A stretch of DNA of 64,000 nt, from positions 75,215,019-75,279,018 of the forward strand of contig NC_088710.1 of NCBI RefSeq assembly GCF_963576615.1, written 5' to 3'. Below the pieces are notes generated by a model that saw only the letters and a list, made by a program, of their open reading frames with translations, was not told the DNA's origin and made no database searches. The position numbers and the translations under genes were made by a program. Positions 7,801 through 62,000 of the stretch are shown piece after piece. Source of the DNA: Watersipora subatra (lineage: Eukaryota > Bryozoa > Gymnolaemata > Cheilostomatida > Watersiporidae). Position 1 is the stretch's first letter, and every line of letters starts with the position of its first letter.

Positions 7801-10800
7801 ACAAAATTCCCATTACAGTTATTTGGTATCAAAAGATTCACCATATCTTACTCTGTTGTGTTGTAGGTGTCAAATACGTGGAAATGTGATTACAGGCTCT
7901 TAAAAGCTCAAAAATGAACAGTTAATCGAAGCCATCACGAAAACGCTGTAGGTTGGAATCCTTCTCCAAAATGGCTCTAATGGGACGTAGTTGTACAAGT
8001 CGAAGGAGTGCATATCATCCTCTGATAAACAGGAGTAGCCTGTTAGTCACCTGTGATAGTCGAAAAATGCTGCAGAAATTGTTCACGCTGTATGGCAGGA
8101 AGTATGGGTCACATGATCAGATTACGACTAGATGATTAGACCAAGCTGAAACAAAACTGAAAAGTCGCGAGCGTCTATATTTGATAAGGGTTTTCCGGTA
8201 GTACCCGAAGTGTTTGTCATAAGCTAGTGCTACGAAACGTTTTATATTGAGCCTTTTATTGGCCTTTCAATTCACGTGAATCACGGTGTCAAAACAATAG
8301 CCAGATCGAGTTGAGTACTACGGCGTTTTCGTGATGGCTGCAGTTAACTGTTCATTTTTGAGCTTTTAAGAGCTTGTAATCACATTTTTACATATTTTGC
8401 ACCTACAACACAGCAGAGTAAGACATGGTGAACCTTTTGATACCAAATAAATGTAATGTGAAGTTTTGTTGCAAGTCAACCTTTAGCATATTTTGGCTAC
8501 CATAACCAAACATTTATGCTTAAAGGCTTAATGACAAATGCACCCGATGTTCGCTACACGGCTACACGTTACACTGTTACACCACTCACACCCTTCAGAA
8601 AGCCAATAAAGGACCTTAATTAGAATTGAATGTGGAGAGCAACTAGCCATGTGACGACCATGTGACTGTGAGGCGAGGAGAATATGATAGGAAACTGGAT
8701 ACGATTAGTTACACTTGGGTCATGCTAAGTCAAACAAGAGCCTGATTGAGTGTGCGACTGCTTGAGTGATCTCAGCATTCAGAAACTACCATGATGAACA
8801 AAACCTCATTATCTCTCGCTTTCTTCTCATTGGCTCAACTAATGCCCCATAACTTATACCAGGTACTACCTAATAGCCTTCGCAGCTAAATGGTGTTGTA
8901 ATCCTAGTAAAACAGGGACAACCGTGCCACTCATTTCATGTATTAATCATCGGCAAGAAGTGCATCCATAAGTGCCGCAATGCATGAGTACACATAACAA
9001 CAAGCATATCATATATTCATCAGCAAACAACAGTGAGACTTTCGAATATTAAAATGTTATATTATCAATTAAAGATATCAGTGCCAGACAGTTGACAGTG
9101 CCAGACAGTTGACAGTGATAAACAGTTGACAGTGACAAACAGTTGACAGTGGCAAACAGTTGACAGTGATAAACAGTTGACAGTGACAAACAGTTGACAG
9201 TGGCAAACAGTTGACATTGACAGACAGTTGACAGTGACAGACAGTTGACAGTGACAGACAGTTGACAATGACAGACAGCTGACAGTGACAGACAGCTGAC
9301 AGTGACAGACAGCTGACAGTGATAGACAGCTGACCGTAATAGACAGCTAACCGTGATAGACAGCTGACCGTGATAGACAGCTGACCATGATAGACAGCTG
9401 ACCGTGATAGACAGCTGACCGTGATAAACAACTGACAGTGACAGACAGCTGATAGTGACAGACAGCTGACAGTGACAGGTAGCTGAGCAGATGGGCAATA
9501 ACTTACCTCTATTCTGTCGTGGTTGAATGGCCATTGGAGCACTAGCAGGAGCATCATAAAGAGCTGAAATTTCTAAGCTCGGACATGAAGTACTGAACCT
9601 CTTCAAGTCCTGCAAGTGAGGTTTGATATCAATGGGCTGTAGGAGTAATATTGTTAATAGTGAACATAGGAGTTGCACGTAGGAGTGGCCGGCCCCTGAG
9701 CCACCAGTCGCTTATCATTGCAACAGCGCAACTATCCACACTCGCTTATCAACAGCCGTCCCTAACTAATCCACACTAAAAATGACCAGCCACTCCTTTC
9801 CAATTGTGGTTACAACCAACTCTCCTACTTCTATGGTTGCCATCAGTCTACTATACCAGCGGTTACAACGAGGGCTTACCTTTCAATGGATTACCATGAG
9901 CAAACCATGCCAGTGGTTACAACAGAGGGCTTACCTTTCAATGGGTTACCATGAGCAAACCATGCCAGTGGTCACAACAGAGGGCTTACCTTTTAATGGG
10001 TTACCATGAGCAAACCATACCAGTGGTCACAACAGAGGGCTTACCTTTCAATGGGTTACCATGAGCAAACCATACCAGTGGTCACAACAGAGGGCTTACC
10101 TTTTAATGGGTTACCATGAGCAAACCATGCCAGTGGTTACAATGATGGCTTACCTTTCAATGGGTTACCATGAGCAAACCATGCCAGTGGTCACAACAGA
10201 GGTCTTACCTTTCAATGGGTTACCATGAGCAAACCATGCCAGTGGTTACAACAGAGGGCTTACCTTTCAATGGGTTACCATGAGCAAACCATGCCAGTGA
10301 TCACAACAGAGGGCTTACCTTTTAATGGGTTACCATGAGCAAACCATACCAGTGGTTACAACAGAGGTCTTACCTTTCAATGGGTTACCATGAGCAAACC
10401 ATACCAGTGGTTACAACAGAGGGCTTACCTTTCAATGGGTTACCATGAGCAAACCATGCCAGTGGTTACAACAGAGGGCTTACCTTTTAATGGGTTACCA
10501 TGAGCAAACCATGCCAGTGGTTACAACAGAGGTCTTACCTTTTAATGGGTTACCATGAGCAAACCATGCCAGTGGTTACAACACAAACTCTAACACTGAT
10601 AACATCTAGATACCTCCAGTAAAGAGTGTAGCAAAAGGTTTTACTAAAAGTACAATCTCCAGCGGACAGCATCTCACCAGCAGGTAAACAGACTAGCCTA
10701 TTGATAATCAACTGCTCAACAACGGAGGGAAAGTACAAAAACTAAAAAATAAACTCGAACAAAATAAAAATAGATAAGTAAAAACAAAATAAAATCACTA

Positions 10801-13800
10801 GTTTCACCATAAATTTATAGCTCAGCATAGCTATATACCTCGCCATAGCTACATGTATATACCTCACTCTAGCTATATACCTCACTGTAGCTATATACTC
10901 ACCATAGCTACATGTATATACCTAACCGTAGATATATACCTCGCTGTAGCTATATACCTCACCATAGCTACATGTGTATATCTCACTGTAGCTATATACC
11001 TTACCATAGTTATATACCTCACCATAGCTATACACCTCACTGTAGCTATATACCTCACCATAGTTATATACCTCACCATAGCTATACACCTCACTGTAGC
11101 TATATACCTCACCATAGCTACATGAGTATACCTCACTGTAGCTATATACCTTACCATAGTTATATACCTCACCATAGCTATACACCTCACTGTAGCTATA
11201 TACCTCACCATAGCTACATGTATATACCTAACTGTAGCTATATACCTTGCTGTAGCTATATACCTCACTGTAGCTACATGCATATACCTCCCTGTAGCTA
11301 TATACCTTACCATAGTTATATACCTCACCATAGCTATACACCTCACTGTAGCTATATACCTCACCATAGCTACATGAGTATACCTCACTGTAGCTATATA
11401 CCTTACCATAGTTATATACCTCACCATAGCTTACACCTCACTGTAGCTATATACCTCACCATAGCTACATGTATATACCTAACTGTAGCTATATACCTTG
11501 CTGTAGCTATATACCTCACTGTAGCTACATGCATATACCTCACTGTAGCTATATACCTTACTATAGCTATATACCTCACCATAGCTATATACCTCACTGC
11601 AGCTATATACCTCACTGTAGCTATATACATCACTGTAGCTATATACCTCACTGTAGCTATATACATCACTGTAGCTATATACCTCACTGTAGCTATATAC
11701 TTCACTGTAGCTATATACTTCACTGTAGCTATATACCTCACTGTAGCTATATACATCACTGTAGCTATAGACCTCACTGTAGCTATATACCTCACTGTAG
11801 CTATATACATCACTGTAGCTATACACCTCACCGTAGCTATATACCTCACCATGACTTCTGTAAAGTAAAATAAAGCTTACCATCCTTCCATTGTCCTTTT
11901 CATCGTGAGTCATAGCTTCGACCTCTTCTCGGTTCCCTTGTGTCATCTTGACACTTTCCGCTGCAAGGTAATCGTATCATGAGCAACAGCAGATAGTCAG
12001 TAAAGAATTCATACAAGCAGTAGCGAATCTAAAGTGATCAGAGCTATGGACCACCAATCGGTTGGTACGACTTTTCTGGTTACCAGTCCTAACCTAACAC
12101 TCATCTCTCACCATAATTTTTGTCACACAAAATCACGTTGGAAGGCTTGAATTAGAACACAAATGTCTCTTGCTACTTTGCGCAGTAGCTAACTCTTACG
12201 GTGTCATTTTACAAAGTTTTGAATAAATGATACTTCCTCGAGAAAAACCAAATTGCATAATTGAAAATGCTGGAGCAAACCTTATCATAGCACATCTAAA
12301 CCATTTCATCTTGTGATGTACCGAGTTTCAAAACCTTTTCATTCCGTAATGTACCTGGTATCAGAACCATTTTATCACGTAATGTACCTAGTATCAGAAC
12401 CTTTTCATCACGTAATGTACCTGGTATGAAAACCATTTCATCACGTAATGTACCTGGTATAAGAACCTTTTCATCACGTAATGTACCTGATATCAAAACC
12501 TTTTCATCACGTAATGTACCTGATATCAGACCCTTTTTATTAAATATTTAAGTCTAACACATGTTATTCAAAGCGTTAAGATATAAACGCACAAGCAACT
12601 GTTTGAGTGCTTTCAAGGGCGATATTGTTCAGACAAACATGGCCAAATCTTGGACACCCCTACTCGCTCTATTTTCAGCAGGCAAACATATCAGCATGAC
12701 ACTTGCTAAGCATCTAGCCTGCTCATTGGTTTATTTATGGAAAAAACTTGGTCAACTGCCCCCTAAACAATGTATGATGAGAGATGGCAATGGTAAGGCC
12801 TCTTGTAATACCAGAATTTGTCAAAAAGTAAACAAAAATAAACACAACGTTTTAATTATTATACTACTTTGTAATCTTTTACTTCATTTTGTATTCGTGC
12901 GCAATTTTTTTTAACATGGTGGAAAGCAGCGATGTAGTAATTTAGTTTATTTCTTCAAAAGACGAAAATTTTTAAGTAGATTGAAGGCAGTCTGATCGGT
13001 AATCAAGAGTGGAAATATGTCAGTAGGATTTGTCAGCAACTCGTCTCAAGTGTGTTCAATTGAGAGTTTTTTCTCCAAGAGAGCTTGCACAAAACGAGCA
13101 AAAACCCGCTAATGTGTTGATAGCTTGAGAATGTCTAAAGTAAAAGTCAAGAAGTTGAAGATGAAAACTGACAATGCATGACAATCACAAACATGTAAAG
13201 ATGAAATACACATATATATATATATATAGCGTAAGTTAGTTTAAGTTACAGTACGTATCCCTAACACAACTATACAGCTGAACCTGTACTTCTGCAGGCC
13301 TACGTTTTCATTCATTGTCAACGTAAAACAAAAATAAAAATTTCTTTTCTAAGATTACTTAGTTTAGTAATGTACTTTATGTACTTTATGTACTTTGTGT
13401 ACTTTGTACATTTCTCGTTACACCTTTCTAATATGCAGTTTCACCAGTCCCAGAAAAAAATAATATGAACAGTCCTACACAAAGTCCCAGTATCCTACAC
13501 AAAGTCCCAGTATCCTACACAAAGTCCCAGTATCCTACACAAAGTCCCAGTATCCTACACAAAGTCCCAGTATCCTACACAAAGTCCCAGTATCCTACAC
13601 AAAGTCCCAGTATCCTACACAAAGTCCCAGTATCCTACACAAAGTCCCAGTATCCTACACACAGTCCCAGTATCCTACACAAAGTCCCAGTATCCTACAC
13701 ACAGTCCCAGTATCCTACACACAGTCCCAGTATCCTACACAAAGTCCCAGTATCCTACACACAGTCCCAGTATCCTACACAAAGTCCCAGTATCCTACAC

Positions 13801-28800: not shown

Positions 28801-31800
28801 AAGATCCTGCAGAAGATGTAAAGAATAGCAGAGTTTAGTGGCTCATCAATATCACCATAAAAGAGGACCAGCTAGATTCTGTAGAGTCAATCTAGTGAAC
28901 ACAGTACACTCACCGATATAATAGTTAAAAGGCTTATATATTGCGCTTGACTTCATTAGATGGAACAATAAAGGGTGCAGTAAAGAGAAAAATGCCAAAT
29001 TTGACAAAACCGTTGCCTCAAAACTTTATGCTAATGTAAATAAGGTATCAAATTAGTTATCACATGACATGATGTTCCACCCTCGGTACATTGTACTGTA
29101 ATCAGGGTAAACTTGACTTGGGTTACAACTCGATTAATGCCGACTATCATCTGTAGTTCATTTATCTGACTCTAACGGCGAGAGAGAGAGAGAGAAGCAA
29201 AACACCATAGCAAGAAACACAAAAGTATGTGGACTGCCTGTTAGATTTCAACTTCAACAAAACACCTCCAGGGTCATAAATCAGGTCACTTACTTAAGCA
29301 TTCCTGTGCCATGACTCAGCCCCTCCGTGACTGACTGTCCTTGGGGCAACATAAAATGAGCTCAGATTCATGCTGTAAATTACTCGTTAGGATTACGTCA
29401 GGGGGATGAAATTGCGCTGCCGCTGGTATTAATACGCTCCCCATTATTGACAGTCATTGTTCGCATGCCAGATGCCAGGTTAAGTTACACGTATATTTGT
29501 CTAAGGGTGCATGGAACTCCTCTGGTATTATGTACGGCATGCGAGTGTTGACTCCCTAATTGTAATTCCTAGCGCTCAAGTCGTAATACATAGTTTTCTA
29601 TGTAAGACATACATAGAAGGTTGGGAGTTGACCTCCCCCCCCACGTGCCCTGTTGCCATGAATATCTCTCTAAAATCCAGAACTTTTTATTAATTTGTTC
29701 TCTCCATCACCTTAGGCATTTTTACAGCTTTTGCAGCTAAGTATGGCAGCAAACTATAGTGGTCAAGTATGGCAACCACTCTGGTCAATAAGCATGCTGC
29801 CCTTTTGACAAAACCTAATTAAAGGATGATATAAAACACAGTTTAGTTTCTATTCATTATTACTATTGTTACTTATTACGTTTCTTTGCTAGTCATTATT
29901 ATTCTAGCAAGTTCTATTCTAGTAATCTAGTAAAGTTATAGCAAACATTGAGAATAGAGTAGTGTTATATCGAGTATAGAGTAGTGTCATATTGAGTATA
30001 GAGTAGTGTTATATTGAGTATAGAGTAGTGTTATATTGAATATAGAGCAGTGTCATATTGAGTATAGAGTAGTGTTATATTGAGTATAGAGTAGTGTTAT
30101 ATTGAGTATAGAGTAGTGTCATATTGAGTATAGAGTAGTGTTATATTGAGTATAGAGTAGTGTTATATTGAATATAGAGTAGTGTCATATCGAGTATAGA
30201 GTAGTGTTATATTGAGTATAAAGTAGTGTCATATTGAGTATAGATTATTGTTATATCGAGTATAGAGTAGTGTCATATTGAGTATAGAGTAGTGTTATAT
30301 TGAGTATAGAGCAGTGTCATATTGAGTATAGAGTAGTGTTATATTGAGTATAGAGTAGTGTTATATTGAGTATAGAGTAGTGTCATATTGAGTATAGAGT
30401 AGTGTTATATTGAGTATAGAGTAGTGTTATATTGAATATAGAGTAGTGTCATATCGAGTATAGAGTAGTGTTATATTGAGTATAAAGTAGTGTCATATTG
30501 AGTATAGATTAGTGTTATATCGAGTATAGAGTAGTGTCATATTGAGTATAGAGTAGTGTTATATTGAGTATAGAGTAGTGTTATATTGAGTATAGAGTAG
30601 TGTCATATTGAGTATAGAGTAGTGTTATATTGAGTATAGAGTAGTGTTATATTGAATATAGAGTAGTGTCATATCGAGTATAGAGTAGTGTTATATTGAG
30701 TATAAAGTAGTGTCATATTGAGTATAGATTAGTGTTATATCGAGTATAGAGTAGTGTCATATTGAGTATAGAGTAGTGTTATATTGAGTATAGAGCAGTG
30801 TCATATTGAGTATAGAGTAGTGTTATATTGAGTATAGAGTAGTGTTATATTGAGTATAGAGTAGTGTCATATTGAGTATAGAGTAGTGTTATATTGAGTA
30901 TAGAGTAGTGTTATATTGAGTATAGAGTAGTGTCATATTGAGTATAGAGTAGTGTTATATTGAGTATAGAGTAGTGTTATATTGAATATAGAGCAGTGTC
31001 ATATTGAGTATAGAGTAGTGTTATATTGAGTATAGAGTAGTGTTATATTGAGTATAGAGTAGTGTCATATTGAGTATAGAGTAGTGTTATATTGAGTATA
31101 GAGTAGTGTTATATTGAATATAGAGTAGTGTCATATCGAGTATAGAGTAGTGTTATATTGAGTATAAAGTAGTGTCATATTGAGTATAGATTAGTGTTAT
31201 ATCGAGTATAGAGTAGTGTCATATTGAGTATAGAGTAGTGTTATATTGAGTATAGAGTAGTGTTATATTGAGTATAGAGTAGTGTCATATTGAGTATAGA
31301 GTAGTGTTATATTGAGTATAGAGTAGTGTTATATTGAGTATAGAGTAGTGTCATATTGAGTATAGAGTAGTGTTATATCGAGTATAGAGTAGTGTCATAT
31401 TGAGTATAGAGTAGTGTCATATTGAGTATAGAGTAGTGTCATATTGAGTATAGAGTAGTGTCATATTGAGTATAGAATATTGTCATATTGAGTATAGAGT
31501 AGTGTTATATCGAGTATAGAGTAGTGTCATATTGAGTATAGATTAGTGTTATATCGAGTATAGAGTAGTGTTATATTGAGTATAGAGTAGTGTCATATTG
31601 AGTATAGAGTAGTGTTATATTGAGTATAGAGTAGTGTTATATTGAATATAGAGCAGTGTCATATTGAGTATAGAGTAGTGTTATATTGAGTATAGAGTAG
31701 TGTTATATTGAGTATAGAGTAGTGTTATATTGAATATAGAGCAGTGTCATATTGAGTATAGAGTAGTGTTATATTGAGTATAGAGTAGTGTTATATTGAG

Positions 31801-37224: not shown

Positions 37225-37383
37225 CGACTGATTGTGAGAGAGAAAGGGAAAGAAAGGGAGAAAGAGAGATAGAGAAATTGGGGAGGCAGAGAGGGAGAAA
37301 GAGAGAGAGAAGGAGAGAGGGAGAGGAAGAGATAGAGAGAGGGAGTGAAAGCGATAGAGAGAAAGAGATAGAGAGAAAGAGAT

Positions 37384-37453
<70 letters not shown>

Positions 37454-37553
37454 AGAGAGAGGGAGGGATAGAGAGAGATATAAAGATGTAGAGAGAGAGA
37501 GAGGCAGAGAGAGAGAGAAAGAGGTAGAGAGAGGGAGAGATAGAGAGAGATAT

Positions 37554-37631
<78 letters not shown>

Positions 37632-37645
37632 TAGAGAGAGGACAC
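37225..37645. repeat. GA/TC-rich microsatellite
   Basis: 420 bp of GA dinucleotide runs with AAAGAGA and GATAGAGA interruptions. The purine strand is plus. The 192-codon Ser/Leu ORF is spurious. Confidence 0.95.
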
Positions 37646-38680: not shown

Positions 38681-38681
38681 T

Positions 38682-43685: not shown

Positions 43686-43800
43686 GCAGGTAGAGATAAG
43701 AATGGAGCAGGTAAACTTGTCTACCTACCAGGAATTGGAGCAGGTAAAATTGTCTACCTAGCAGGAATAGGAGCAGGTAAACTTGTCTACCTACCAGGAA
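43686..43800. repeat. Tandem triplication of a 33-bp unit containing a splice-donor-like site
   Basis: Three copies of a unit that on the minus strand reads CCTATTCCTGGTAGGTAGAC and then AAGTTTACCTGCT. The first copy overlaps the 3' end of the ORF 43787-44536. Each unit repeats the same GGTAGGTAGAC donor-like sequence. Confidence 0.88.
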
Positions 43801-44536
43801 TAGGTGCAGATCTGGTCACGGTGAGCCGGTGCTTCTCTAACAATCGCTGTTCACATCTCTGACCTCTTCTCAAAAGCTGCTGCCGAGCTGTTTGCTGACT
43901 TGAGAGTCTACTGGCAGCCTCTTTAATGTGCGGTGATCTTTGTGAGTGCATTCGCTCTACCTTAACAGACTTGACTGCTGACTCAGACGTGAAAGCTGCT
44001 GCTTTCTTTTGTGTCTGTGTTGGATGGACTGGTGCACCATCCTGGCCGATATCAAAGAAAAATGCATTTGTAATCTGCAGCTCACTGTTGGTGTCTCTGC
44101 TTAAAGAACCAGCCAGTTCTGTTGCATCATCACAAGAGCTTGAGAGGGAAGATTCTGGAGAGCAACTTTCATGACGAGAAGTTATTTTACTCCGAACTAA
44201 TCCCGCAGGCATGCTGATCAGACTCCAGCTTCTCCTCAGCAACTTACCAAACTGCCCCTTCCTCGGTAGCTTTGTCTGAGAGTTAGGGCAAGCATCACTA
44301 ACTTCCAATTCCAGTCCATGTTTAGATTTTGGTGTGACCTTTCCCCGCTCTTCAGTGACAATATATTGGTTGTGCGCTGTTGATGCTTGGCATGGTTTCA
44401 TACCTGTTACATTCACATAATCCTCACTAGAAAGTCTGCAGAAACAGTTAGAAATATCACCAAACTGGATAGATACTAACTGTGAAGTAAGACTCTGCTC
44501 CGATGCATCCTTGTCTTTCACATGAATGCCCACCAT
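43795..44536 (-). CDS. Long ORF, probable coding exon; possibly 5' exon of the RhoGEF-like gene
   Basis: 247 codons of non-repetitive sequence from Met 44536, with an in-frame TGA two codons upstream. The protein is Ser-, Gln- and Arg-rich: basic LPRKGQFGKLLRRSWSLISM, acidic/Ser HESCSPESSLSSSCDDATEL, a short FFFDIG motif and an Arg/Gln-rich end SSQQTARQQLLRRGQRCEQR. No known domain was recognised. Two donors are possible: CCTG|GTAGGT (43795, phase 1) joins in frame to the acceptor at 34894, and GGTAG|GTAGAC (43791) leaves phase 2. An internal acceptor (TAACTGTTTCTGCAG) and donor (AACAG|GTATGA) near 44405-44436 hint that only part may be exon. The link to the RhoGEF gene is inference. Confidence 0.5.
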
Positions 44537-46943: not shown

Positions 46944-47047
46944 ATGGCCTTGAACGCTAAACCTTATCAGGCAATGGTTGTGGAGGCCTTGCAGGCTCTT
47001 GGAGACAAAAAAGGTTCATCAAGACAGCGGATACTTAAATACATCTT
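46944..47047 (+). CDS. H1: H1 exon 1, first part of globular domain
   Basis: MALNAKPYQAMVVEALQALG and onward to KYI, with donor ATCTT|GTAAGT, phase 2. An N-terminal tail of only about five residues is short for H1. An upstream exon or the Met at 46869 remains possible. Confidence 0.82.
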
Positions 47048-50000
47048 GTAAGTAGCGACCACCTTTCACATATTGCTATATTTATTATATAGGTTATATA
47101 CAACCACCTTTCACATATTGCTATATTTATTATATAGGTTATATACAACCACCTTTCACATATTGCTATATTTATTATATAGGTTATATACAACCACCTT
47201 TCACATATTGCTATATTTATTATATAGGTTATATACAACCACCTTTCACGTATTGCGATATTTATTATATAGGTTATATACAACCACCTTTCACATATTG
47301 CTATATTTATTATATAGGTTATATACAACCACCTTTCACGTATTGCGATATTTATTATATAGGTTATATACAACCACCTTTCACATATTGCTATATTTAT
47401 TATATAGTTTATATACAACCACCTTTCACATAATGCTATATTTATTGTATAGGTTAGACACTACTATATCTCATATACTACTATATCTCATATACTACTA
47501 TATCTCATATACTACTATATCTCATATACTACTATATCTCATATACTACTATATCTCATATACTACTATATCTCATATACTACTATATCTCGTATACTAC
47601 TATATCTCATATACTACTATATCTCGTATACTACTATATTTCATATACTACTATATCTCGTATACTACTATATCTCGTATACAACTATATCTCGTATACT
47701 ACTATATCTCGTATACTACTATATCTCGTATACTACTATATCTCGTATACTACTATATCTCGTATACTACTATATCTCGTATACTACTATATCTCGTATA
47801 CTACTATATCTCGTATACTACTATATCTCGTATACAACTATATCTCGTATACAACTATATCTCGTATACTACTATATCTCGTATACTACTATATCTCGTA
47901 TACTACTATATCTCGTATACTACTATATCTCGTATACTACTATATCTCGTATACTACTATATCTCGTATACTACTATATCTCGTATACAACTATATCTCG
48001 TATACAACTATATCTCGTATACTACTATATCTCGTATACTACTATATCTCGTATACTACTATATCTCGTATACTACTATATCTCGTATACTACTATATCT
48101 CGTATACTACTATATCTCGTATACTACTATATCTCGTATACTACTATATCTCGTATACTACTATATCTCGTATACTACTATATCTCGTATACTACTATAT
48201 CTCGTATACTACTATATCTCGTATACTACTATATCTCGTATACTACTATATCTCGTATACTACTATATCTCGTATACTACTATATCTCGTATACTACTAT
48301 ATCTCGTATACTACTATATCTCGTATACTACTATATCTCGTATACTACTATATCTCGTATACTACTATATCTCGTATACTACTATATCTCGTATACTACT
48401 ATATCTCGTATACTACTATATCTCGTATACTACTATATCTCGTATACTACTATATCTCGTATACTACTATATCTCGTATACTACTATATCTCGTATACTA
48501 CTATATCTCGTATACTACTATATCTCGTATACTACTATATCTCGTATACTACTATATCTCGTATACTACTATATCTCGTATACTACTATATCTCGTATAC
48601 TACTATATCTCGTATACTACTATATCTCGTATACTACTATATCTCGTATACTACTATATCTCGTATACTACTATATCTCGTATACTACTATATCTCGTAT
48701 ACTACTATATCTCGTATACTACTATATCTCGTATACTACTATATCTCGTATACTACTATATCTCGTATACTACTATATCTCGTATACTACTATATCTCGT
48801 ATACTACTATATCTCGTATACTACTATATCTCGTATACTACTATATCTCGTATACTACTATATCTCATATACTACTATATCTCATATACTACTATATCTC
48901 ATATACTACTATATCTCATATACTACTATATCTCATATACTACTATATCTCATATACTACTATATCTCATATACTACTATATCTCATATACTACTATATC
49001 TCATATACTACTATATCTCATATACTACTATATCTCATATACTACTATATCTCATATACTACTATATCTCATATACTACTATATCTCATATACTACTATA
49101 TCTCATATACTACTATATCTCATATACTACTATATCTCATATGCTACTATATCTCATATGCTACTATATCTCATATACTACTATATCTCATATACTACTA
49201 TATCTCATATACTACTATATCTCATATACTACTATATCTCATATACTACTATATCTCATATACTACTATATCTCATATACTACTATATCTCATATACTAC
49301 TATATCTCATATACTACTATATCTCATATACTACTATATCTCATATACTACTATATCTCATATACTACTATATTTCATATACTACTATATCTCATATACT
49401 ACTATATTTCATATACTACTATATCTCATATACTACTATATCTCATATACTACTATATTTTACATACTACTATATCTCATATACTACTATATTTTACATA
49501 CTACTATATTTTATATACTACTATATTTTATATACTACTATATTTTATATACTACTATATTTTATATACTACTATATTTTATATACTACTATATTTTATA
49601 TACTGCTGTAATATCTCATACACCACCCGTATATCATACAAACTACCAGGGGAGTAAAGAGTATGCCAGGTCTGGCAGACAGAGCTCTTTGGTACTGTTA
49701 TACATCTTGGTGTAGTTTGTAGATTTATAAGGAACATTGCCTGAACTGTTTAGAAGTGCAACTAGTACATGTATGTAAATTATTTTGTACTGTTGTGAAA
49801 AGGGTGATCTCTCGTTTTCTGGGATTACTCTTCCATACTTCTGCAAAGTGTGCAGCACATGCTGGTGATCAAACAGAAATTCCTGCCTAATTGATCCATG
49901 GCTGTTTATCGCACAGGTTACACTATGAGGTGCCGAAAGATGAGAAGAAGGTGGCGAAGTATATGAAAATTGCTCTGAATAAGGCCATAGAGAGCGAGAC

Positions 50001-51024
50001 TGTAATTCAGAAGAAAGGCAAGGGGATGACTGGAAGCTTTGCATTGGTAAGATACTAACACAAGAGAACTGTACGTGAGACTATTGCAATGGTTTGGCAA
50101 GAGTATCGGTAAGTGATAGATGAATCGCAGAGACTGTATGAATGGCATAGACTGTATGAATCGCGTAGACTGTATGAGTCACGTAGACTGTGATATGCAT
50201 AGACTGTGTGAATCGCAAGAGACTGTGTGAATCGCGTAGACTGTATGAGTCACGTAGACTGCGTGAATCGCGTAGACTGCGTGAATCGCGTAGACTGCGT
50301 GAATCGCGTAGACTGTATGAATCGCGTAGACTGTATGAATCGCGTAGACTGTATGAATCGCGTAGTCTGTATGAATCGCGTAGTCTGTATGAATCGCGTA
50401 CCACCGTGAGTCATCTAACAATTCTTTCAACTTTAGAATCTCAAGTCACAGGCAGCTACAACAAACATGGCTAAAGGTGACTTCAAAAAAGTACCAGCTA
50501 AGGCGAAAACGACAACTATAAGACGACTCTCTATGCACACCAAAGTGATCTCTGCCATACCTCCAACTCCTAAAAAACGACTTGCATCCAACAAGGCCTT
50601 GACAGCAGAGCTAAATAAAACTTATGATGTTGAGGAAAGTTCGGAGGTTTCATCTAGCTCTCCTCCCTTAACTTCCCCAACAAGGACCTCTGCACTCATC
50701 GAAGTACAAAAATCGGCTCCAAAAGCGAATAAGAGGGGTCGTCAACCAATGCTGTCTGATGAGATCCCTAAAGCAGCCAAAGACGGCAAGACTAGCAAAA
50801 AAGGAAAATCTTCAAATGGTAGCAGCAAGACATCTGTTGCGCAGAAGAAGCCCACAACAGCCACCAAGAAGTCAGCGGCAAGTGCTAAGAAACTGACACC
50901 AGGCGGTAGAAAGTCGGGACTTGCCAATAAAAAGTTGGCAGCCACTAGCAAAGCGACAAAAGCTAATAAAAAGTCTGGTGCAGCTGGTAAAAAAATTACG
51001 AACAAGTCAGCAAAACTATTATAA
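46944..51024 (+). CDS. H1: Linker histone H1, three exons
   Basis: Exons 46944-47047, 49917-50046 and 50437-51024 (or 50452) join in frame (phases 2, 0) to about 273 residues. The globular winged-helix (H15) domain is split by intron 1: KPYQAMVVEALQALGDKKGS and SRQRILKYI, then LHYEVPKDEKKVAKYMKIAL and NKAIESETVIQKKGKGMTGS. The C-terminal tail is rich in Lys, Ala, Ser and Thr (KKSAASAKKLTPGGRKSGLA) with TPKK and SPTR sites of the kind CDKs phosphorylate. Linker histones bind nucleosome dyads and compact chromatin. Introns and a poly(A) signal (AATAAA, 51176-51181), with no histone stem-loop seen, indicate a replication-independent, polyadenylated type. The start may lie upstream: the frame is open to Met 46869. 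No core histone genes adjoin it. Confidence 0.88.
47057..47455. repeat. Minisatellite, 45-bp unit, at start of H1 intron 1
   Basis: Nine copies, core ACCACCTTTCACATATTGCT. The first copy begins about 10 bp after the splice donor. CACGTATTGCG variants occur twice. The 127-codon minus ORF is spurious. Confidence 0.95.
47458..49601. repeat. 2.1-kb minisatellite, 17-bp unit, in H1 intron 1
   Basis: About 126 copies of ACTACTATATCTCRTAT. The centre (about 47590-48860) is almost wholly CTCGTAT, the flanks CTCATAT, and the right end TTTTATAT, so the array is zoned. Rare ACAACTATATCTCGTAT units recur in clusters. The 880-codon ORF exists only because the 51-bp supercycle lacks stop codons. Confidence 0.96.
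49602..49916. other. End of H1 intron 1
   Basis: Unique sequence leading to the acceptor GTTTATCGCACAG at 49916. Nothing else is seen. Confidence 0.6.
49917..50046 (+). CDS. H1: H1 exon 2, second part of globular domain
   Basis: Acceptor TTTATCGCACAG|G and donor GCATTG|GTAAGA. Phase 2 in, phase 0 out, 130 nt. It encodes LHYEVPKDEKKVAKYMKIAL, NKAIESETVIQKKGKGMTGS, FAL, the helix 3 and wing of the H15 fold. Confidence 0.88.
50118..50405. repeat. Minisatellite, 18-bp unit, in H1 intron 2
   Basis: About 16 copies of CGTAGACTGTATGAATCG, with TGCGTGAATCG, TGAGTCA and TAGTCTG variants. It fills most of the 390-bp intron and produces ORFs on both strands, all rejected. Confidence 0.94.
50437..51024 (+). 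CDS. H1: H1 exon 3, Lys-rich C-terminal tail
   Basis: Acceptor TTCTTTCAACTTTAG at 50436, or CAAGTCACAG at 50451; both are in phase 0. It encodes MAKGDFKKVPAKAKTTTIRR, then SAIPPTPKKRLASNK and a long Lys/Ala/Ser tail ending SAKLL before TAA. It is normal for H1 tails to be poorly conserved. Confidence 0.88.
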   Translation, partial: NLKSQAATTNMAKGDFKKVPAKAKTTTIRRLSMHTKVISAIPPTPKKRLASNKALTAELNKTYDVEESSEVSSSSPPLTSPTRTSALIEVQKSAPKANKRGRQPMLSDEIPKAAKDGKTSKKGKSSNGSSKTSVAQKKPTTATKKSAASAKKLTPGGRKSGLANKKLAATSKATKANKKSGAAGKKITNKSAKLL

Positions 51025-51337: not shown

Positions 51338-51523
51338 TATGAAAACTATCATCAAAAACAAAACTACAAATATGAGCATAAATTAAACAAAACTATCAAT
51401 TCTGAAATAGTGAATTCGGAATAGGTGAATTCTGAGATAGTTACTAGGACAAGACTGATTCAGAGTTTTTCCACAGATTGCAAGACTAATTGTGAGTTAC
51501 TCAACAGATTGGTAGAGAATGGA

Positions 51524-51663
51524 TTAGATTTTATTATTTAGGATGCGATATGGGTCTTTTGTTTCCTTCAGAATCTGATAGGACTTCTGGAAAATTGCTT
51601 TTATTTTCTTGAATGTCTGAGGATCATAAACACTCCTTGCAACATTCGTCAGATTGAAGGGTT
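51524..51663 (-). CDS. TENT2-like: Left GLD2 paralogue, last exon
   Basis: Acceptor GTGGTCTGTTGCAG at 51664, phase 1. It encodes PFNLTNVARSVYDPQTFKKI, KAIFQKSYQILKETKDPYRI, LNNKI and TAA. EEPFN.TNVARSV is the GLD2 C-terminal motif. The acceptor's pyrimidine tract is part of a 17-bp repeat. Confidence 0.87.
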
Positions 51664-54600
51664 CTGCAACAGACCACAAGATAACAACAGACCACAAGAT
51701 AACAACAGACCACAAGATAACAACAGACCACACACAAGAAAACGGCGAGTTCAGAAGAAACTACATGGCGAACTTGACAGCTTTCTGATGGCAGCAGAAA
51801 ACAGTTACAAATTACAGTGCTAGTAGAAATGACACATGTGTGTTTAGTAGAAAGCTCGAGTGGCAGACCTTCAACAAAAAGCTGGGCATTGGTGTATGAA
51901 TTGAGAGGGGCCTGCCTGTCCGCGCTGTGGGCGTCTTGGCAAGTTGGCTGGGCCTTGCGTACCTGCTCTAGAAGTAGGTGTCTTCCAAGACGCACCGACA
52001 TGACTGTTGTATCAAATCTACAAGTAAAGCCCTTGTACCGAGGTGCACTTTAAATCACTTGAAATGATAGCATACAAGAGACTCACTCATCAAAAATATC
52101 AATTTAACCAAATGGGACAATTTTTAATAACTGCTAGTCGTACTGTCTAAGGCACCGGCAGAACAAATACTGTGATTGCAGCGCATATGCAAGCCCAATG
52201 AAGCTCCACTCCCACAAAGTCCCTTACTTGAAGTTATTTGCATAGAGATCAAAAAAACCAAGCAGAAGTTCCCCGAGGGACATGGTGTTGCAGCTCTGTT
52301 GGATATATGGAGGCATCACCACATTCCCAATTAGCACTGGCACATCTTCATTAAAGAATTCCTATAAATAGACCAACAACGCCGTTTAGCTGAACTGCTA
52401 TGCTAGCCACTAACAAAGGGACTAAAATGGCTTCAATCTCTTCCATTAGCACTTCAAACTTTCGTATGTTTTAAAGAAAAACAAAGCATTTTGGTTGCTA
52501 GTGATCTAATATTAGATGCCCTTTATACTTGAATAATAGGGGACAAACTGGATAGAGCGACAAATGTGGTAGTAACCCACTGCTTGAGTTTGTTGTATAG
52601 AAGGCAAGAGTGGACAACTCCCAAGACCGCATTGGAGGTAGTTGATGACCATGAGCGTCAAGGCATAGCTGCAAATAGTTTGGTTTTTTGCCGAATTTAT
52701 GCGATGAGACCTGGCCCACCTCTTAACAAACAAGACCAATGGTGTCACTCTCCAATCATCTACCAATAGAATCAGTCACAGAAAAGCTACTACGGTAATA
52801 ACCCTGCGAAAGCAGGCATCGTATAACTGAGCTTGTTTCAAGAAATCGTGTTACTGTAGATGTGTACTTACAGTTAGCGTAGCACCGCAACAAGTGAGAG
52901 TTTCGAAGGCCCACCACATTGTTGACATTGAGGTTTAGGGTCGTACCACTAAAATTACAAATTAGTTATTTGGTTTACCGATGATGGGCATATTTTCTAC
53001 AATATTTCACATCGCTCAATGACGTAATTATTTTGCTAGAAGAACTGTCCTATAAAAAAACATTTTTATGCTTGGCCATTTACCAACGACTTTACAACAG
53101 CAAATTATCTGTTGCTACTATCAAGTGTAAACTGATGTCTCAATTAATTGGCCAATGGCAGAATACGACTGTTCTTTAGCCATGACTCATCCCCCATTTA
53201 CTAGTTCCCTAATTTTAATGTACATGTATATTCATTTCTGTGTTGGCTGCTAACAATTGGTCTTTAACAGACAAAAAGTTGAAAATTACTGCCAATGGCC
53301 GCCCTGCAAAACATTTTATTGGTTAATAATGAAATTAGGCGAGCCATTGGTACAAATTTTTTAAAATTTCCTCAAAAGGTTTTTCTAAAAAAATGACACC
53401 TGATATAGCTGTTATAAGTACAACTTCATAGGTTTTTAGTGCCTTTACAGACTATGCAATCAGTTTTGTGTACTTACGTTGAGTTGTCATGGATGTTGAG
53501 AATTGGTACAGTAGCCCTTATCAGCTCACAGTTGCACCATCTAACTACAGTATGTTACAAACATTTATTGCATCTCTTCCTTGAATGTTTATGCGCTAAA
53601 GATATCGGAGGTTGGTATTCCAGATTTAAAAAACCACTAATAAAATATTTTTAGTGTCTAGTAAAGAGGCATATACATGTATGGCTTAAGCACATTACAA
53701 CATAGTGAGCAACTTGTCACGGAACTGAAGCACCTGTCGCACGTGTCGACTACCTACCTCCAAGTCAAATATTTCACTCGCCAGTTTTGTGTGTCAATAG
53801 CTTTAACTATTAAGGGTCCCCGTAAGAAATGCTGACACAATCTATTGTTTATTATAGATGCTTACTTGTTTGATGCAAGAGTCCCTGCACGCCAGCGAGC
53901 ACCCTCAGGGCAGCACTTCTTTGCACCTACAGTACACAGACACATTTACTTATACATGTATATTATGCTACATAATATATTACGTTACTTACTGTTTAAA
54001 CAGCTTGAGCGAGTGAGTTGTCACCTCTGTTGTGGACATCATAAGGCAGACATCAAGATCACATTTCTCCATGCCGTAACCGCTCAACACCGAGCCTATG
54101 ATGAAGATTCCTTGTTGATCTAAAATAGGAAAATACTGCAGTTTGATAGCGATGCTATTGTTTTGATGTAGCAGTACAATTTAGTGAAACTTACTCAGCA
54201 CCTGTGTAACGTCCTGCGCTTACCGTAGTGGTACCAGGAATGGGCCTGCAGCATGGCAGAGCTAAGTGCATCCACGACACCAACTTTTGCAAGCAGTTCG
54301 GAGTCGCTGAGTTTACAAGCATTTGTAATCTCCACCAGGGCATATTCCATAAGCAACATCTTGTGTTGCGGGGAGTTCATATACACCTACAAGTAGTTAG
54401 TGGTTAGTCCGCTTCAAGTTGCTCGTACCAGCCGACCTCGGCTTTTACCACTTGATCACGCCAATTAAACTCACCAGCTCTGGAGAAGCTGTCTGATCGC
54501 TTCTTTTTCTTACTTCCAAGAGAATTTCACGGCTCGGTGATTTGAAGCACATAGAACAATAGCAGGTAGGCAGCCCGTTGTTCTTAGAAAAGGCCGACTT

Positions 54601-54688
54601 GGCATGATCGGAGCAGGAAGAGAAATAGTCAACACATTCCTGGCGTCGCTCAAATCGTGTTGAAATTGGAGAATGTCCGAGTGAACAA
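51524..54688 (-). CDS. TENT2-like: GLD2-type non-canonical poly(A) polymerase, left paralogue, with substituted catalytic Asp
   Basis: Exons in order: 54688-54514, 54386-54224, 54119-54025, 53926-53866, 53544-53478, 52948-52872, 52759-52581, 52361-52228, 52017-51869, 51663-51524. All nine junctions agree in phase. Nucleotidyltransferase signature: IIGSVLSGYGMEKCDLDVCL (GS motif and DxD), then ELIRATVPILNIHDN and LNLNVNNVVGLRNSHLL. The third catalytic Asp of the family (DLN.NN) is Asn here. The central domain (DWRVTPLVLFVKRWARSHRI, SYALTLMVINYLQ) and the PAP-associated part (LGELLLGFFDLYANNF; EPFNLTNVARSVYD) match GLD2. GLD2 adds poly(A) tails to cytoplasmic mRNAs in oocytes and neurons. With Asn at this position the protein may be inactive or altered, but all exons are intact. 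The 5' end lies above 54688. Confidence 0.85.
51666..51737. repeat. Tandem repeat, 17-bp unit, abutting a splice acceptor
   Basis: About four copies of AACAGACCACAAGATAA. On the minus strand it reads TTATCTTGTGGTCTGTT and runs directly into the GCAG acceptor of the last exon. Confidence 0.9.
51869..52017 (-). CDS. TENT2-like: Left GLD2 paralogue, exon 9 of those found
   Basis: Acceptor GCTTTACTTGTAG, phase 2 in. The donor GAAG|GTCTGC is weak, but the right paralogue also has a weak donor (GTTCGT) at the same place. It encodes DTTVMSVRLGRHLLLEQVRK, AQPTCQDAHSADRQAPLNSY, TNAQLFVE. MSVR..R matches the SVR segment of the PAP-associated domain. Confidence 0.8.
52228..52361 (-). CDS. TENT2-like: Left GLD2 paralogue, exon 8
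   Basis: Acceptor CTATTTATAG, donor CTTCAA|GTAAGG. Phase 0 in, phase 2 out. It encodes EFFNEDVPVLIGNVVMPPYI, QQSCNTMSLGELLLGFFDLY, ANNF. LGELLLGFF.LY is the PAP/25A-associated motif. Confidence 0.84.
52581..52759 (-). CDS. TENT2-like: Left GLD2 paralogue, exon 7, central domain
   Basis: Acceptor TTCTATTGGTAG, phase 1 in. The donor AAGCA|GTGGGT is placed by phase and by alignment with the right paralogue. It encodes DWRVTPLVLFVKRWARSHRI, NSAKNQTICSYALTLMVINY, LQCGLGSCPLLPSIQQTQA. KRWA...I and SYALTLM..NYLQ are nucleotide-binding elements of the family. Confidence 0.88.
52872..52948 (-). CDS. TENT2-like: Left GLD2 paralogue, exon 6, third catalytic Asp changed to Asn
   Basis: 77 nt, the same as its counterpart. 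It encodes GTTLNLNVNNVVGLRNSHLL and RCYAN. The family has Asp before LN.NN; here the codon is AAC (Asn). The rest of the strand is well kept. Confidence 0.88.
53478..53544 (-). CDS. TENT2-like: Left GLD2 paralogue, exon 5
   Basis: Acceptor ACATACTGTAG, donor TCAAC|GTAAGT. It encodes RWCNCELIRATVPILNIHDN and S. ELIRATVPIL matches the strand before the third Asp. The overlapping plus ORF (53439-53654) is spurious. Confidence 0.82.
53866..53926 (-). CDS. TENT2-like: Left GLD2 paralogue, exon 4
   Basis: 61 nt, the same length as the right paralogue's exon. It encodes VQRSAALRVLAGVQGLLHQT, aligned to VTRSEAIGVLRAVEGVLKAA in the other copy. Donor AACAA|GTAAGC. Confidence 0.8.
54025..54119 (-). CDS. 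TENT2-like: Left GLD2 paralogue, exon 3, catalytic GS and DxD
   Basis: Acceptor CCTATTTTAG, donor CAGAG|GTGACA. It encodes QQGIFIIGSVLSGYGMEKCD, LDVCLMMSTTE. GS..SGYG and D-L-D are the nucleotidyltransferase motif binding the 3' end, nucleotide and metal. Confidence 0.87.
54224..54386 (-). CDS. TENT2-like: Left GLD2 paralogue, exon 2
   Basis: Acceptor CTACTTGTAG, donor CTACG|GTAAGC. Phase 0 in, phase 1 out. It encodes VYMNSPQHKMLLMEYALVEI, TNACKLSDSELLAKVGVVDA, LSSAMLQAHSWYHY, a helical stretch before the catalytic core. Confidence 0.78.
54514..54688 (-). CDS. TENT2-like: Left GLD2 paralogue, exon 1 of those found, Cys-rich
   Basis: Acceptor ATCTTACTGTAG, donor TTGGAA|GTAAGA. Phase 2 in, phase 0 out. 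It encodes CSLGHSPISTRFERRQECVD, YFSSCSDHAKSAFSKNNGLP, TCYCSMCFKSPSREILLE. Six Cys and two His, including CYCSMC, could bind zinc; that is inference. The frame differs from the 68-codon ORF with Met at 54716. Earlier exons are not found. Confidence 0.65.
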
Positions 54689-54715
54689 CTACAGTAAGAT
54701 AGCGAGATATGATCA

Positions 54716-54890
54716 ACTTACAAATAACAGTATGGTAGGCTTATAGAACTTAGTTCGCTGTTAGTCCCCGAGGCCTAACAGTATGGTAGGCTTATAGAAC
54801 TTAGTTCCCTGTTAGTCCCCGAAGCCTAACAGTATGGTAGGCTTATAGAACTTAGTTCCCTGTTAGTCCCCGAAGCCTAACAGTGGTAAG
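54716..54890. repeat. Tandem repeat, 51-bp unit
   Basis: Three copies plus, core TATGGTAGGCTTATAGAACT with TTAGTCCCCGA. It starts about 27 bp upstream (transcript sense) of the Cys-rich exon. Confidence 0.92.
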
Positions 54891-58693: not shown

Positions 58694-58892
58694 TTTCAAA
58701 AAAATGTTTTTTTTTAATGTATTTATAGCGGCAAGCGCCAAAAACTAAGATATGCACTAGCAGAGATTCATTGTAAAATGTTCTAATTACGAAAATATTA
58801 TAAAAGTACAGTTAAAAACATGAAGATATTTAAAAGCAACTAATAAATTTTTTAAAGCTAAGAATGTTGGCACGATTCGAAACTTTAAGATT

Positions 58893-59023
58893 TCAGTTAA
58901 AAATGGAGAAAGGGTTATGGGATGTAGTCAGCTCATCATAAGCTTCCTTGAAGACTTTTTTAATTCCTTGGAAGACTTCAGGGTCATAAACACTTCGGCT
59001 AACGTTTGTTCTGTTGAACGGTT
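58893..59023 (-). CDS. TENT2-like: Right GLD2 paralogue, last exon
   Basis: Acceptor GAATTTTCTTTTAG, phase 1. It encodes PFNRTNVSRSVYDPEVFQGI, KKVFKEAYDELTTSHNPFSI, FN and TGA. Confidence 0.86.
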
Positions 59024-62000
59024 CTAAAAGAAAATTCTACTACACATTCAGATGTTAGAGATTGTTGCATAGTATGACAATATGATCAAACATATACATC
59101 CATACAATATGAGCAATCATATACTTCCATACAATGTGATCCAATCATATACTTCCATACAATATGATCCAATCATATACATCCATACAATATGATCCAA
59201 TCATATACATCCATACAATATGATCCAATCATATACATCCATACAATATGATCCAATCATATACATCCATACAATATGAGCCGATCATATACATCCATAC
59301 AATATGAGCCGATCATATACATCCATACAATTAAGAAACAAATGAATCGCGGTAGAAATAAAAGATAGTCAACAAGAGAGTGAGAGTGACAGTGAATAAT
59401 CAGCTGACCAGGTAGTTAATAAAACCTGGCTAACCTTCTGATAGCGTGCAGAGTGTGAACAACTCTCAAATAAGTAAAAACTAAAGAAGCTAGGAACCCG
59501 CTCATACGAACCTTCGATGAACATATAGGCGTTGTCATAGGTATAAGATGGGGTCTGAGCATCCATTTCCCTGTCTGCCCCGTGTAATCCACCATATTGA
59601 GACATTCTTTGCTGAGCCTGCTCCCATTTGACTTTGTCTATAGGCAGTATCTGCCCTCGACGCACTGAGAGCACATCAAACTCAAATCTGCAACAATAGC
59701 ATTGACTACTACTGACTCCAAAGCCTTGCTGATTCATAAATAACATTTGTTCAGCATCTAATATAGCTGGTGAGATGTACTCAGCCCCTACATTCAATTT
59801 CCGTAACAAAGCTAATGCGGAGCTTCAATATGGATAAAACCAGATAAGCTTTTTATGGCATGCAAAAACATGTAGAATAACATGCTATTTCCTAATATTT
59901 GTGACTGTACATAAATATGATAACATTGACTGCGTGTAACCAGTGAGCCATAATTATGAAATGTGCTTGTGAATGGAGGTTGGTTATACGGACATGCGCT
60001 GAAGAATGGTTATAGTAACATGCGCTAGAGAGTGGTTATAGTGACATGCGCTAGAGAGTGGTTATAATGACATGCGCTAGAGAGTGGTTATAATGACATG
60101 TGCTAGAGAGTGGTTATAGTGACACGTGCTGGAAATATCTGGTTACATACCTAAACTGGTGCACATAAAAGTAAAAGAAGCCAAGAAGCAGATCATAGAG
60201 GCTCATCATATTGAGTCGGTCTTTAGGAAAAGGCAGAAATGTTGGAAGATTCATGGCTAAAGTTGCAATGTCATCTGTGAAGTATTGCTGAAAAAGGAAA
60301 GGATGACATCGCAAGAATGATTTGAACATAACATATAGACAATGGATGAAAGGGATTCATTCGATGGACTTAAAATAAATTGAAACTAACCGGGTAAGCT
60401 TGCTGGAGGCAAGGTAACACCGGGTATTCAAGACCTAACTGGAGGTATCCAATCACCATCAAAGTGAGGGCATAACTGCATATAGTCTTGTGTCTAGCCG
60501 AGTTTATATTCCTACTCTTAGCCCACTTTTTGATGAAAAGTATGAGGGGCTTGACTCTCCAGTCAACTGCAAAATAGATGAAGAATATATTCAAAGTTAT
60601 CCTCTCTGTTGTCTTCAACAATACTAACTACATTCATAATAAAATATTAAAATTACAACTACTATTATATTGAATAGTATTTGTATTTATAGGGATACAA
60701 ATATTAGGCATCATGAAATATAATAGAAAATAAAGAACAGGCTTATAAAGTTAGAAGAGAACGGGATAGCAAACACTCACAGTTGGCGTAACACGTGAGC
60801 AGATGTGAATTCCTGATACCCACTTTGTTGTTGATGTTTAGATCACAGACGATGGTTCTACAAAGTACATGTATATGACGCTTGACAGCTGCCAGCCATG
60901 AACAACAGCCAACTGGCAACTCAATAAGACTAGTAGCATGAAAACTAGATTATAATTAAAAGGCAGAGTTTAAAAATAGGTCAAATGATACGACGTCTTT
61001 CATAACCAGGCTATGCATTCGCTGATCATGCATGCGCATACTATTGTAAACAATATTAAACATAATTAATGTTTATTATAAAATATAACAAAGATATTAT
61101 AAGTGTACAAATACAAAAACCTACTCTAAGAAACAGAATTCATAGATCGTACACGATGTCTGGTGTTACAATCTTTAAGCTGAACTCACTGGATGCAATG
61201 AAAAGTTGGGGTAAAAAAAAGCAGAATAGAGTGGGCCGCAGCGACAACGAAACAGTCTAGTGCTCTAGTCTCAAAACTCAATTACAAATATAGTTTGTCA
61301 GTGTACACAGAGTACGGTGAACACAGTATATGCACCAGCGACTATAGTGGGGTAAACATGAGAATTAATTCATTGTCATTAGAAGCTTCCATGCTGATAA
61401 CAGCATGTTTTGGCAAACTCTCTGGTACAGGTTTCAGTTATTGGATAAACAACATGAGGATTAATATTACACTGTCAACAGAACAGGAACTTTAATAATA
61501 AGAAATATAGCATGAAGAATCACATGACATTAATAATTTCACTGGCAAGTAGTTGCAAAGAGCTGTAGCTGAATGTTACTATGAGTCCATAGAAGTACTA
61601 CCATAGAAGTAATACCATAGACAAAATACTATAGAAGTAATACCATAGACAAAATACCATAGAAGTAATACCATTGACAAAATACCATAGAAGTAATACC
61701 ATAGACAAAATACCATAGAAGTAATATCAATGTCTCATGTCTGTTTCTGTGAGCAGGCGATGTAATTAGAGAGTTCTACTTCGTGCTTTCCAAGAGAAAA
61801 TACAGCAAGTAGGGTGCAATTGAAAGACTGCTCAGCAGTTATAATGTAGATATACTTACGTCTGTTCATCTGTGAAGATCAATATTGGCACAACTGCTGT
61901 GATCACTTGTACATTGCACCAACCTGTAAAGCAACCTTTAGGTTGTCATAAGGTCATTAACACGGCTATCTTTTGCCACCCTCATGAGGTGTAACTACAT

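What the first reader, a model, noticed from the sequence alone, without database searches (positions are those of the whole stretch)
9485..60151. Minisatellites repeatedly begin within about 30 bp of splice junctions
Comparing my inferred junctions with array edges gives these gaps. Donor 34565 to the 22-bp array: about 8 bp. H1 donor 47048 to the 45-bp array: about 10 bp. Donor 60150 to the 26-bp array: about 17 bp. Donor 9506 to the 17-bp array: about 20 bp. Donor 11880 to the 18-bp array: about 28 bp. The donor of the 43.8-kb ORF lies inside its 33-bp array, and acceptor 51664 is joined directly to a 17-bp array. The Cys-rich exon acceptor at 54689 is about 27 bp from a 51-bp array. That is roughly 8 of about 30 inferred junctions, most of them donors. 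Random placement in introns averaging kilobases would rarely do this. Arrays may be seeded at, or tolerated next to, splice sites, perhaps linked to R-loops or replication slippage, and may drive intron growth here.
Basis: partly seen in the sequence, partly recalled or inferred. Interest (0 to 1): 0.8.

Follow-up and report, generated by a model that had tools for sequence, protein, structure and literature searches.

The report
Repeat arrays crowding introns near donors
About a third of this stretch of animal DNA is short tandem-repeat arrays that fill the introns, and although several do begin just inside a splice donor, the pattern is close to what random placement in originally short introns would give.

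Summary
The window is animal nuclear DNA. I rebuilt four genes with reading-frame checks: two GLD-2-type poly(A) polymerases, an intron-bearing linker histone H1 and an unnamed 10-exon gene. They give 26 complete introns (52 junctions). Forty-two minisatellite arrays cover 35% of the window: 40% of intron sequence, 0 of 4,821 exon bases. The cited neighbours are mostly real: 5 donors and 1 acceptor lie within 30 bp of an array. But that is 6 of 52, not 8 of about 30; one cited acceptor is 35 bp away and one cited donor is unproven. Random placement of arrays inside their own introns predicts 1.3 donors and 1.3 acceptors. So there is a nominal donor-only excess (p 0.004; 0.03 over thresholds) and no acceptor excess. 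It disappears if introns were originally 200-300 bp, like most array-free ones here, or if the gene without a named homologue is left out (p 0.24). R-loop seeding is disfavoured: 4 of 5 donor-side arrays have more C than G on the RNA-like strand. At 9 of 9 tested junctions the unit does not match the flank better than chance, so these are not amphioxus 'mirages'. Arrays do account for much intron length. The splice-site link is a weak lead.

The parts
34566..34988 (-). exon 1 of the unnamed 10-exon gene (called GEF in my notes); donor at 34565
   Evidence: open frame of 642 codons over 10 exons with consistent phases, no stop; no Pfam family above cut-off
29947..34560 (.). 22-bp array, 4.6 kb, begins 5 bp inside donor 34565 (intron 1)
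   Evidence: TRF; gap
10804..11852 (.). 18-bp array, 28 bp from donor 11880 (intron 7)
9856..10583 (.). 55-bp array in the same intron; 13 donor-like AAG|GTAAG copies on the sense strand (10 GTAAGC, 3 GTAAGA)
9079..9486 (.). 17-bp array, 20 bp from donor 9506 (intron 8)
46944..51024 (+). linker histone H1 gene, exons 46944-47047, 49917-50046, 50437-51024
   Evidence: Pfam Linker_histone E 3.1e-20, in frame across both introns
47058..47456 (.). 45-bp array, 10 bp from H1 donor 47048
47460..49594 (.). 17-bp array adjoining the 45-bp array in H1 intron 1
50120..50400 (.). 18-bp array in H1 intron 2, 36 bp from the acceptor
51500..54688 (-). GLD-2-type poly(A) polymerase copy A, 10 exons found (more may lie upstream)
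   Evidence: open frame to a stop; Pfam MTPAP-like_central and PAP_assoc; PDB gld-2 4zrl E 2.6e-48 over residues 61-412
51667..51732 (.). 18-bp array whose last unit runs into acceptor 51664 (only CAG between)
54725..54884 (.). 51-bp array, 35 bp from putative acceptor 54689 (the partner donor of that intron was not found)
58880..62173 (-). GLD-2-type copy B, last 7 exons, junctions homologous to copy A
59981..60124 (.). 26-bp array, 26 bp from donor 60150; no array in the homologous intron of copy A (52018-52227)
59077..59331 (.). 28-bp array in the last intron of copy B, 53 bp from acceptor 59024
43700..43809 (.). 33-bp array that overlaps the end of the 43.8-kb ORF (43787-44539, minus); the ORF's claimed donor at 43794 is unverified

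Best explanation
This is a minisatellite-saturated stretch of an animal genome. Unrelated short sequences are duplicated in tandem at many independent places in non-coding DNA and then grow by slippage or unequal exchange; arrays that reach exon sequence are removed by selection. Growth adds copies inside the array and does not move its edges, so an edge records where the first duplication happened. Because introns were short to begin with (array-free ones have a median of 212 bp), many seeds necessarily lie within tens of bp of a splice site, and later array growth makes the intron kilobases long, so the closeness looks improbable in hindsight. A mild leftover preference for the donor side may come from the smaller protected zone at donors (about 6-8 nt) than at acceptors (branch point plus pyrimidine tract). 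Shown: array content, exon exclusion, unrelated units, gap sizes. Inferred: independent seeding, growth mode, short ancestral introns, role of selection, sizes of the protected zones (recalled).
For: 42 arrays cover 34.9% of the window: introns 40%, other DNA 33%, exons 0 of 4,821 bp, so the arrays are not specific to introns. Of 36 units compared (of 42 arrays), only one pair is related (4388/5976, inverted), so they arose independently. With free intron length capped at 300 or 210 bp, expected junction hits are 5.4 or 6.7 against 6 observed. Arrays differ between homologous introns of the two GLD-2 copies (donor 60150 has one, its counterpart at 52227 does not), so they look young and dispensable. 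None of 24 short tandem repeats (TRF score 30-49) in complete introns lies within 30 bp of a donor (0.82 expected, recounted).
Against: With present-day free intron lengths the donor excess stands at p 0.003-0.004 (0.03 over thresholds). It survives a rough transposon correction (p 0.005) and leaving out copy A, copy B or H1 (p 0.001-0.008), and Fisher combination gives p 0.005. Ancestral intron lengths are assumed, not known.
Confidence: 0.6

Rival explanations
1. Real donor-side seeding bias: tandem duplications start preferentially just downstream of 5' splice sites, through some process tied to transcription or splicing, and then drive intron growth.
For: 5 of 12 array-bearing introns have an array within 30 bp of the donor against 1.27 expected; 1 acceptor against 1.27; Wilcoxon donor gap smaller than acceptor gap p 0.017. 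Array units carry donor-like 9-mers on the sense strand more often than matched intron DNA: 8 of 26 at 5 bits or more against 2.3, p 0.003; dinucleotide-shuffle z 2.46 for 28 units, acceptor z 0.28.
Against: Post hoc, small n, not significant without the gene lacking a named homologue (p 0.24) or with short ancestral introns. Donor gap is below acceptor gap in 8 of 12 introns only, one-sided binomial p 0.19. Short proto-repeats show no donor bias (0 of 24). The donor-adjacent arrays are not themselves clearly donor-like (mid-p 0.11-0.49).
Confidence: 0.25
2. Arrays near donors are kept because they help splicing or protect long introns, for example by offering extra U1 binding sites or enhancer motifs.
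For: The 55-bp array carries 13 sense-strand AAG|GTAAG copies (10 GTAAGC, 3 GTAAGA); its consensus scores 11.0, higher than 25 of 26 real donors here. In C. elegans a minisatellite is over-represented near alternative splicing decisions (PMC4039745, passages read).
Against: Presence is not conserved between the homologous GLD-2 introns. No two of the five donor-adjacent arrays appear among the best unit matches, and they are not themselves unusually donor-like. The 55-bp array itself is 1,297 bp from the donor.
Confidence: 0.1
3. Mirage-type arrays: the repeat unit is a duplicated exon-intron boundary, as described in amphioxus.
For: Same setting (arrays touching splice junctions). At the 43.8-kb ORF the 33-bp unit contains CCTG|GTAGGT together with the end of the ORF.
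Against: In 9 of 9 usable pairs the exon or gap flank does not match the unit better than shuffles (lowest p 0.094). The 43.8-kb case was also run, but with the junction set 8 bp off, so that row does not test it; its donor is unproven.
Confidence: 0.05

Closest known systems
Amphioxus 'mirages' (Adh3, globin, troponin C, PGBD5 genes)
   Same: Minisatellite-like tandem arrays at exon-intron boundaries; both 5' and 3' boundaries can be affected; splicing apparently tolerates them (PMC3087553 abstract and passages; PMC3902484 one passage). The original Adh paper is not held.
   Different: Mirage units span the boundary and copy exon sequence; here no unit-flank match was found at 9 of 9 usable junctions.
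Ordinary intronic minisatellites / VNTRs
   Same: Tandem units of 9-107 bp, locus-specific, 76-100% matches in the rows used, none overlapping an exon of the models.
   Different: Very high density: 42 arrays and 35% of 64 kb.
C. elegans CeRep25B minisatellite near alternative splicing regions
   Same: Intronic minisatellite statistically linked to splicing regions (PMC4039745 passages).
   Different: That is one repeat family enriched by gene class; here the arrays are nearly all unrelated to each other (one related pair among 36 units).
Intron gain by tandem duplication of AGGT
   Same: Links tandem duplication to intron origin (PMC4974935, title and start of abstract in the search listing only; AGGT recalled).
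   Different: Here intron phase and order are shared by both GLD-2 copies (6 of 6 comparable introns; the edges of some were set with the paralogue's help), so the introns are older than the arrays.

Membership tests
Minisatellite arrays | head-to-tail units of about 9-100 bp, locus-specific | tested here: met
Amphioxus-type mirages | repeat unit contains the duplicated exon-intron boundary | tested here: not met
   no significant unit-flank match in 9 of 9 usable pairs, lowest p 0.094; the 43.8-kb ORF array includes the ORF end, but its donor is unproven and its row had a misplaced junction
Amphioxus-type mirages | units carry AG/GT splice signals | tested here: inconclusive
   8 of 26 units have a donor-like 9-mer of 5 bits or more on the sense strand against 2.3 in control DNA; no such trend for acceptors
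Amphioxus-type mirages | germline or somatic length instability | not testable with these tools
   only one haplotype is available
   donors p 0.003-0.03, acceptors no excess, not significant under short-intron nulls
R-loop-seeded arrays | G-rich non-template strand at the seeding site | tested here: not met
   4 of 5 donor-side arrays have C>G on the sense strand; the GGG rate is at most 1 per kb in all five

The most novel reading that the evidence does not exclude
In this lineage tandem duplications are seeded preferentially a few to 30 bp downstream of 5' splice sites, by a splicing- or transcription-linked process that is not R-loop formation, and the resulting arrays, whose units tend to resemble donors on the sense strand, are a main engine of intron growth.
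Probability: 0.17. Interest if true: 0.65.

Novelty: new member of a known kind. Interest (0 to 1): 0.3.

Why it matters
How introns become long is an open question. A genome in which minisatellites make up 40% of intron sequence is a good place to watch it, and if seeds really favour donors, the array edge would mark the event. As it stands, the case mainly shows that array-junction distances must be judged against array-free intron length and not against present-day intron length.

Tried and rejected
No whole genome is held for the window, so the genome-wide test could not be run. A tblastn of the H1 C-terminal exon against phages and a scan of viral contigs for the GLD-2 protein found nothing. 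Pfam found nothing for the 43.8-kb ORF and only a sub-threshold match (E 1.4, below its cut-off) for the 10-exon gene. That gene gave only weak matches in the PDB search (6 chains up to E 1, best E 0.0046, ankyrin repeats). Its likeness to the N-terminus of AKAP13 / p190RhoGEF is from memory and comes from no call. Rfam found nothing at gathering thresholds.

Rejected: junction copying as the seed; R-loop favourable skew; mobile dispersal of one minisatellite; acceptor-like motifs in units. My first gene models had wrong edges at three GLD-2 sites and missed one exon of the 10-exon gene; these were corrected by phase and paralogue comparison.

Dropped before counting: low-complexity tracts (GA at 37236-37640, ATA at 38587-38684, TA at 46613-46724, although TRF also lists longer-period rows for them); the 15 of 42 arrays outside complete introns; and the half-introns at gene-model ends (acceptors 54689 and 62174, donor 1161). 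Counting acceptor 54689 (35 bp) would not change the 30-bp count. A 22-bp proto-repeat (1127-1148) lies 13 bp from half-intron donor 1161 and was not counted. The donor-motif test used 26 units (24 from complete introns, 2 from half-introns; units at 2938, 13370 and 14419 left out) and 28 (the last two added). One search compared 36 of 42 units. The hand list of short repeats held one that overlaps an array edge and lacked one other; the recount drops all overlaps and again gives 24. The transposon correction used 2,336 bp and 701 bp plus a rough 1,950 bp for the repeat-rich 2.4-4.36 kb stretch seen.
Full report
What the window is. The 64-kb window is eukaryotic and no genome is held for it. 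I rebuilt gene models by locating exon edges and checking phase and open frame. Copies A (minus, 54688-51500, 10 exons found) and B (minus, 62173-58880, last 7 exons) of a GLD-2-type poly(A) polymerase read through to a stop in one frame. They match Pfam MTPAP-like_central and PAP_assoc, and copy A aligns with gld-2 (4zrl, E 2.6e-48, residues 61-412) and GLD2 (6lbk, residues 51-415) across introns 2-9; intron 1, at residue 58, lies at the edge of the 6lbk match only. Several exons of the two copies match each other at protein level, and all six comparable introns have the same phase and order; three of the edges were set with the help of the other copy or of phase. A plus-strand gene (46944-51024, 3 exons) is a linker histone H1 (E 3.1e-20). 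A fourth gene (minus, 34988-1162, 10 exons) is open for 642 codons with matching phases but has no Pfam family above cut-off, so its junctions rest on frame logic alone; weak ankyrin matches (best E 0.0046) are all the homology found. Together: 26 complete introns, 52 junctions, all GT-AG. Species and exact taxon were not determined; 'animal' is inferred from the gene set.

Arrays. TRF finds 42 arrays with units of 9 bp or more and score of 50 or more, 22,307 bp, 34.9% of the window. They cover 15,842 of 39,527 intron bp, 6,465 of 19,652 other bp and 0 of 4,821 exon bp. Twelve of 26 introns carry 27 arrays. Of 36 units compared, only the 43-bp pair at 4388 and 5976 is related (inverted; score 66 against a maximum of 24 in 30 shuffled sets).

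Check of the claim. Within 30 bp of an array: donors 34565 (5 bp), 47048 (10), 9506 (20), 60150 (26), 11880 (28), and acceptor 51664 (3). Acceptor 54689 is 35 bp away. The 43.8-kb ORF donor is unproven: that ORF meets a stop just beyond it, inside the array, and has no family match. So the count is 6 of 52 and not 8 of about 30.

Is it more than chance? Keeping each intron and its arrays and placing the arrays at random, 1.27 donors and 1.27 acceptors are expected within 30 bp. Observed 5 (p 0.003-0.004) and 1 (p 0.75). Allowing for choice of threshold (5-100 bp): donors p 0.031, acceptors 0.39, both 0.059. Threshold-free Fisher: donors 0.005, acceptors 0.79; donor gap below acceptor gap in 8 of 12 introns, Wilcoxon p 0.017, binomial p 0.19. 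Spreading all 27 arrays over all free intron DNA gives 0.92 expected donors, p 0.0026. Rough transposon correction: p 0.0054. Leaving out one gene at a time: p 0.0013 without copy A, 0.0083 without copy B, 0.0037 without H1, 0.24 without the 10-exon gene.

The main weakness is the yardstick. Array-free introns here have a median of 212 bp; array-bearing ones have a median of 574 bp once arrays are taken out, and some of that is transposon-like. If free length at seeding was at most 1000, 500, 300 or 210 bp, the donor p over thresholds becomes 0.067, 0.13, 0.29 or 0.51, and the total expected hits are 3.2, 4.1, 5.4 or 6.7 against 6 observed. The data therefore do not separate a real donor bias from short ancestral introns. 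What the short-intron model does not explain by itself is the one-sidedness (5 donors, 1 acceptor); a wider protected zone at acceptors is my inference for that.

Tests of mechanism. (a) Units do not copy the junction: 9 of 9 usable pairs (5 donors, 4 acceptors at 3-53 bp) show no significant unit-flank match, lowest p 0.094; a tenth row, for the 43.8-kb ORF, had its junction 8 bp off and is set aside. At donor 34565 the first intron bases TATG-CTACTC look like a unit with three bases missing, and at acceptor 51664 the array's last unit supplies the upstream flank with only CAG between; both are read by eye. (b) R-loops: donor-side arrays have sense skews of -0.76, +0.47, -0.15, -0.48 and -0.39, while 16 of 22 other intronic arrays are positive (Mann-Whitney p 0.042). 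This is the opposite of what R-loop seeding would favour. (c) Proto-arrays: of 24 short tandem repeats (TRF score 30-49, not overlapping the arrays) in complete introns, 0 lie within 30 bp of a donor and 1 within 30 bp of an acceptor, 0.82 expected each (recount 52). (d) Donor-like units: array units have better donor-like 9-mers on the sense strand than matched intron DNA (8 of 26 at 5 bits or more, 2.3 expected, p 0.003; sense-minus-antisense p 0.010; the simple count of sense above antisense, 16 of 26, p 0.105). By dinucleotide shuffles z is 2.46, antisense 0.22, acceptor-like 0.28. Without the 55-bp array the paired sense/antisense test is p 0.065. The donor-adjacent arrays are not clearly donor-like. 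I treat this as a lead.

Paralogues. Six introns can be compared between copies A and B. Arrays are in 1 of 6 in A and 3 of 6 in B, and only the last intron has one in both, with units not among the related pairs. So the arrays came after the introns and come and go (inference).

Literature. Arrays at exon-intron boundaries are known as mirages in amphioxus genes (PMC3087553, abstract and passages; PMC3902484, one passage), but their units contain the boundary. A C. elegans minisatellite is linked to alternative splicing regions (PMC4039745, passages). Searches listed no paper whose title or shown start of abstract reports a donor-side bias of minisatellites; the lists are capped and subscription papers are mostly not held, so absence here says little.

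Verdict. Real arrays, mostly real proximity, correct remark that arrays lengthen introns; unproven and possibly illusory link to splice sites; R-loop cause disfavoured. The question is directly testable with the whole genome.

Noticed in passing
9856-10583: 55-bp array with 13 donor-like AAG|GTAAG copies (10 GTAAGC, 3 GTAAGA) on the sense strand of the gene it lies in; the consensus scores 11.0, above 25 of 26 real donors.
   Followed up: partly
36232-37117 and 7785-8485: Two related elements with long terminal inverted repeats (139 nt at 96%; 149 nt at 89% plus 22 nt at 100%), like non-autonomous DNA transposons.
   Followed up: partly
15485-17820: 2.3-kb stretch with 22-nt inverted ends (91%) starting TTAA, between pieces of an older repeat that seems to continue on both sides; piggyBac-like ends are recalled, not tested.
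   Followed up: partly
4388-5122 and 5976-6197: Two 43-bp arrays that are near reverse complements of each other, about 850 bp apart.
   Followed up: partly
46944-51024: A linker histone H1 gene with two introns, one well inside the globular domain and one at its end, whereas replication-type H1 genes usually lack introns (recalled).
   Followed up: no
51500-54688 and 58880-62173: Tandem pair of diverged GLD-2-type poly(A) polymerase genes with shared intron phases.
   Followed up: yes
43787-44539: ORF of 250 codons plus stop, without family match, that ends at a stop inside a 33-bp array whose unit holds a donor-like CCTG|GTAGGT.
   Followed up: partly
26 array units, 2338-62574: Units are donor-like on the sense strand only (8 of 26 against 2.3 expected), with no acceptor trend; might reflect extra U1 sites in long introns.
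   Followed up: partly
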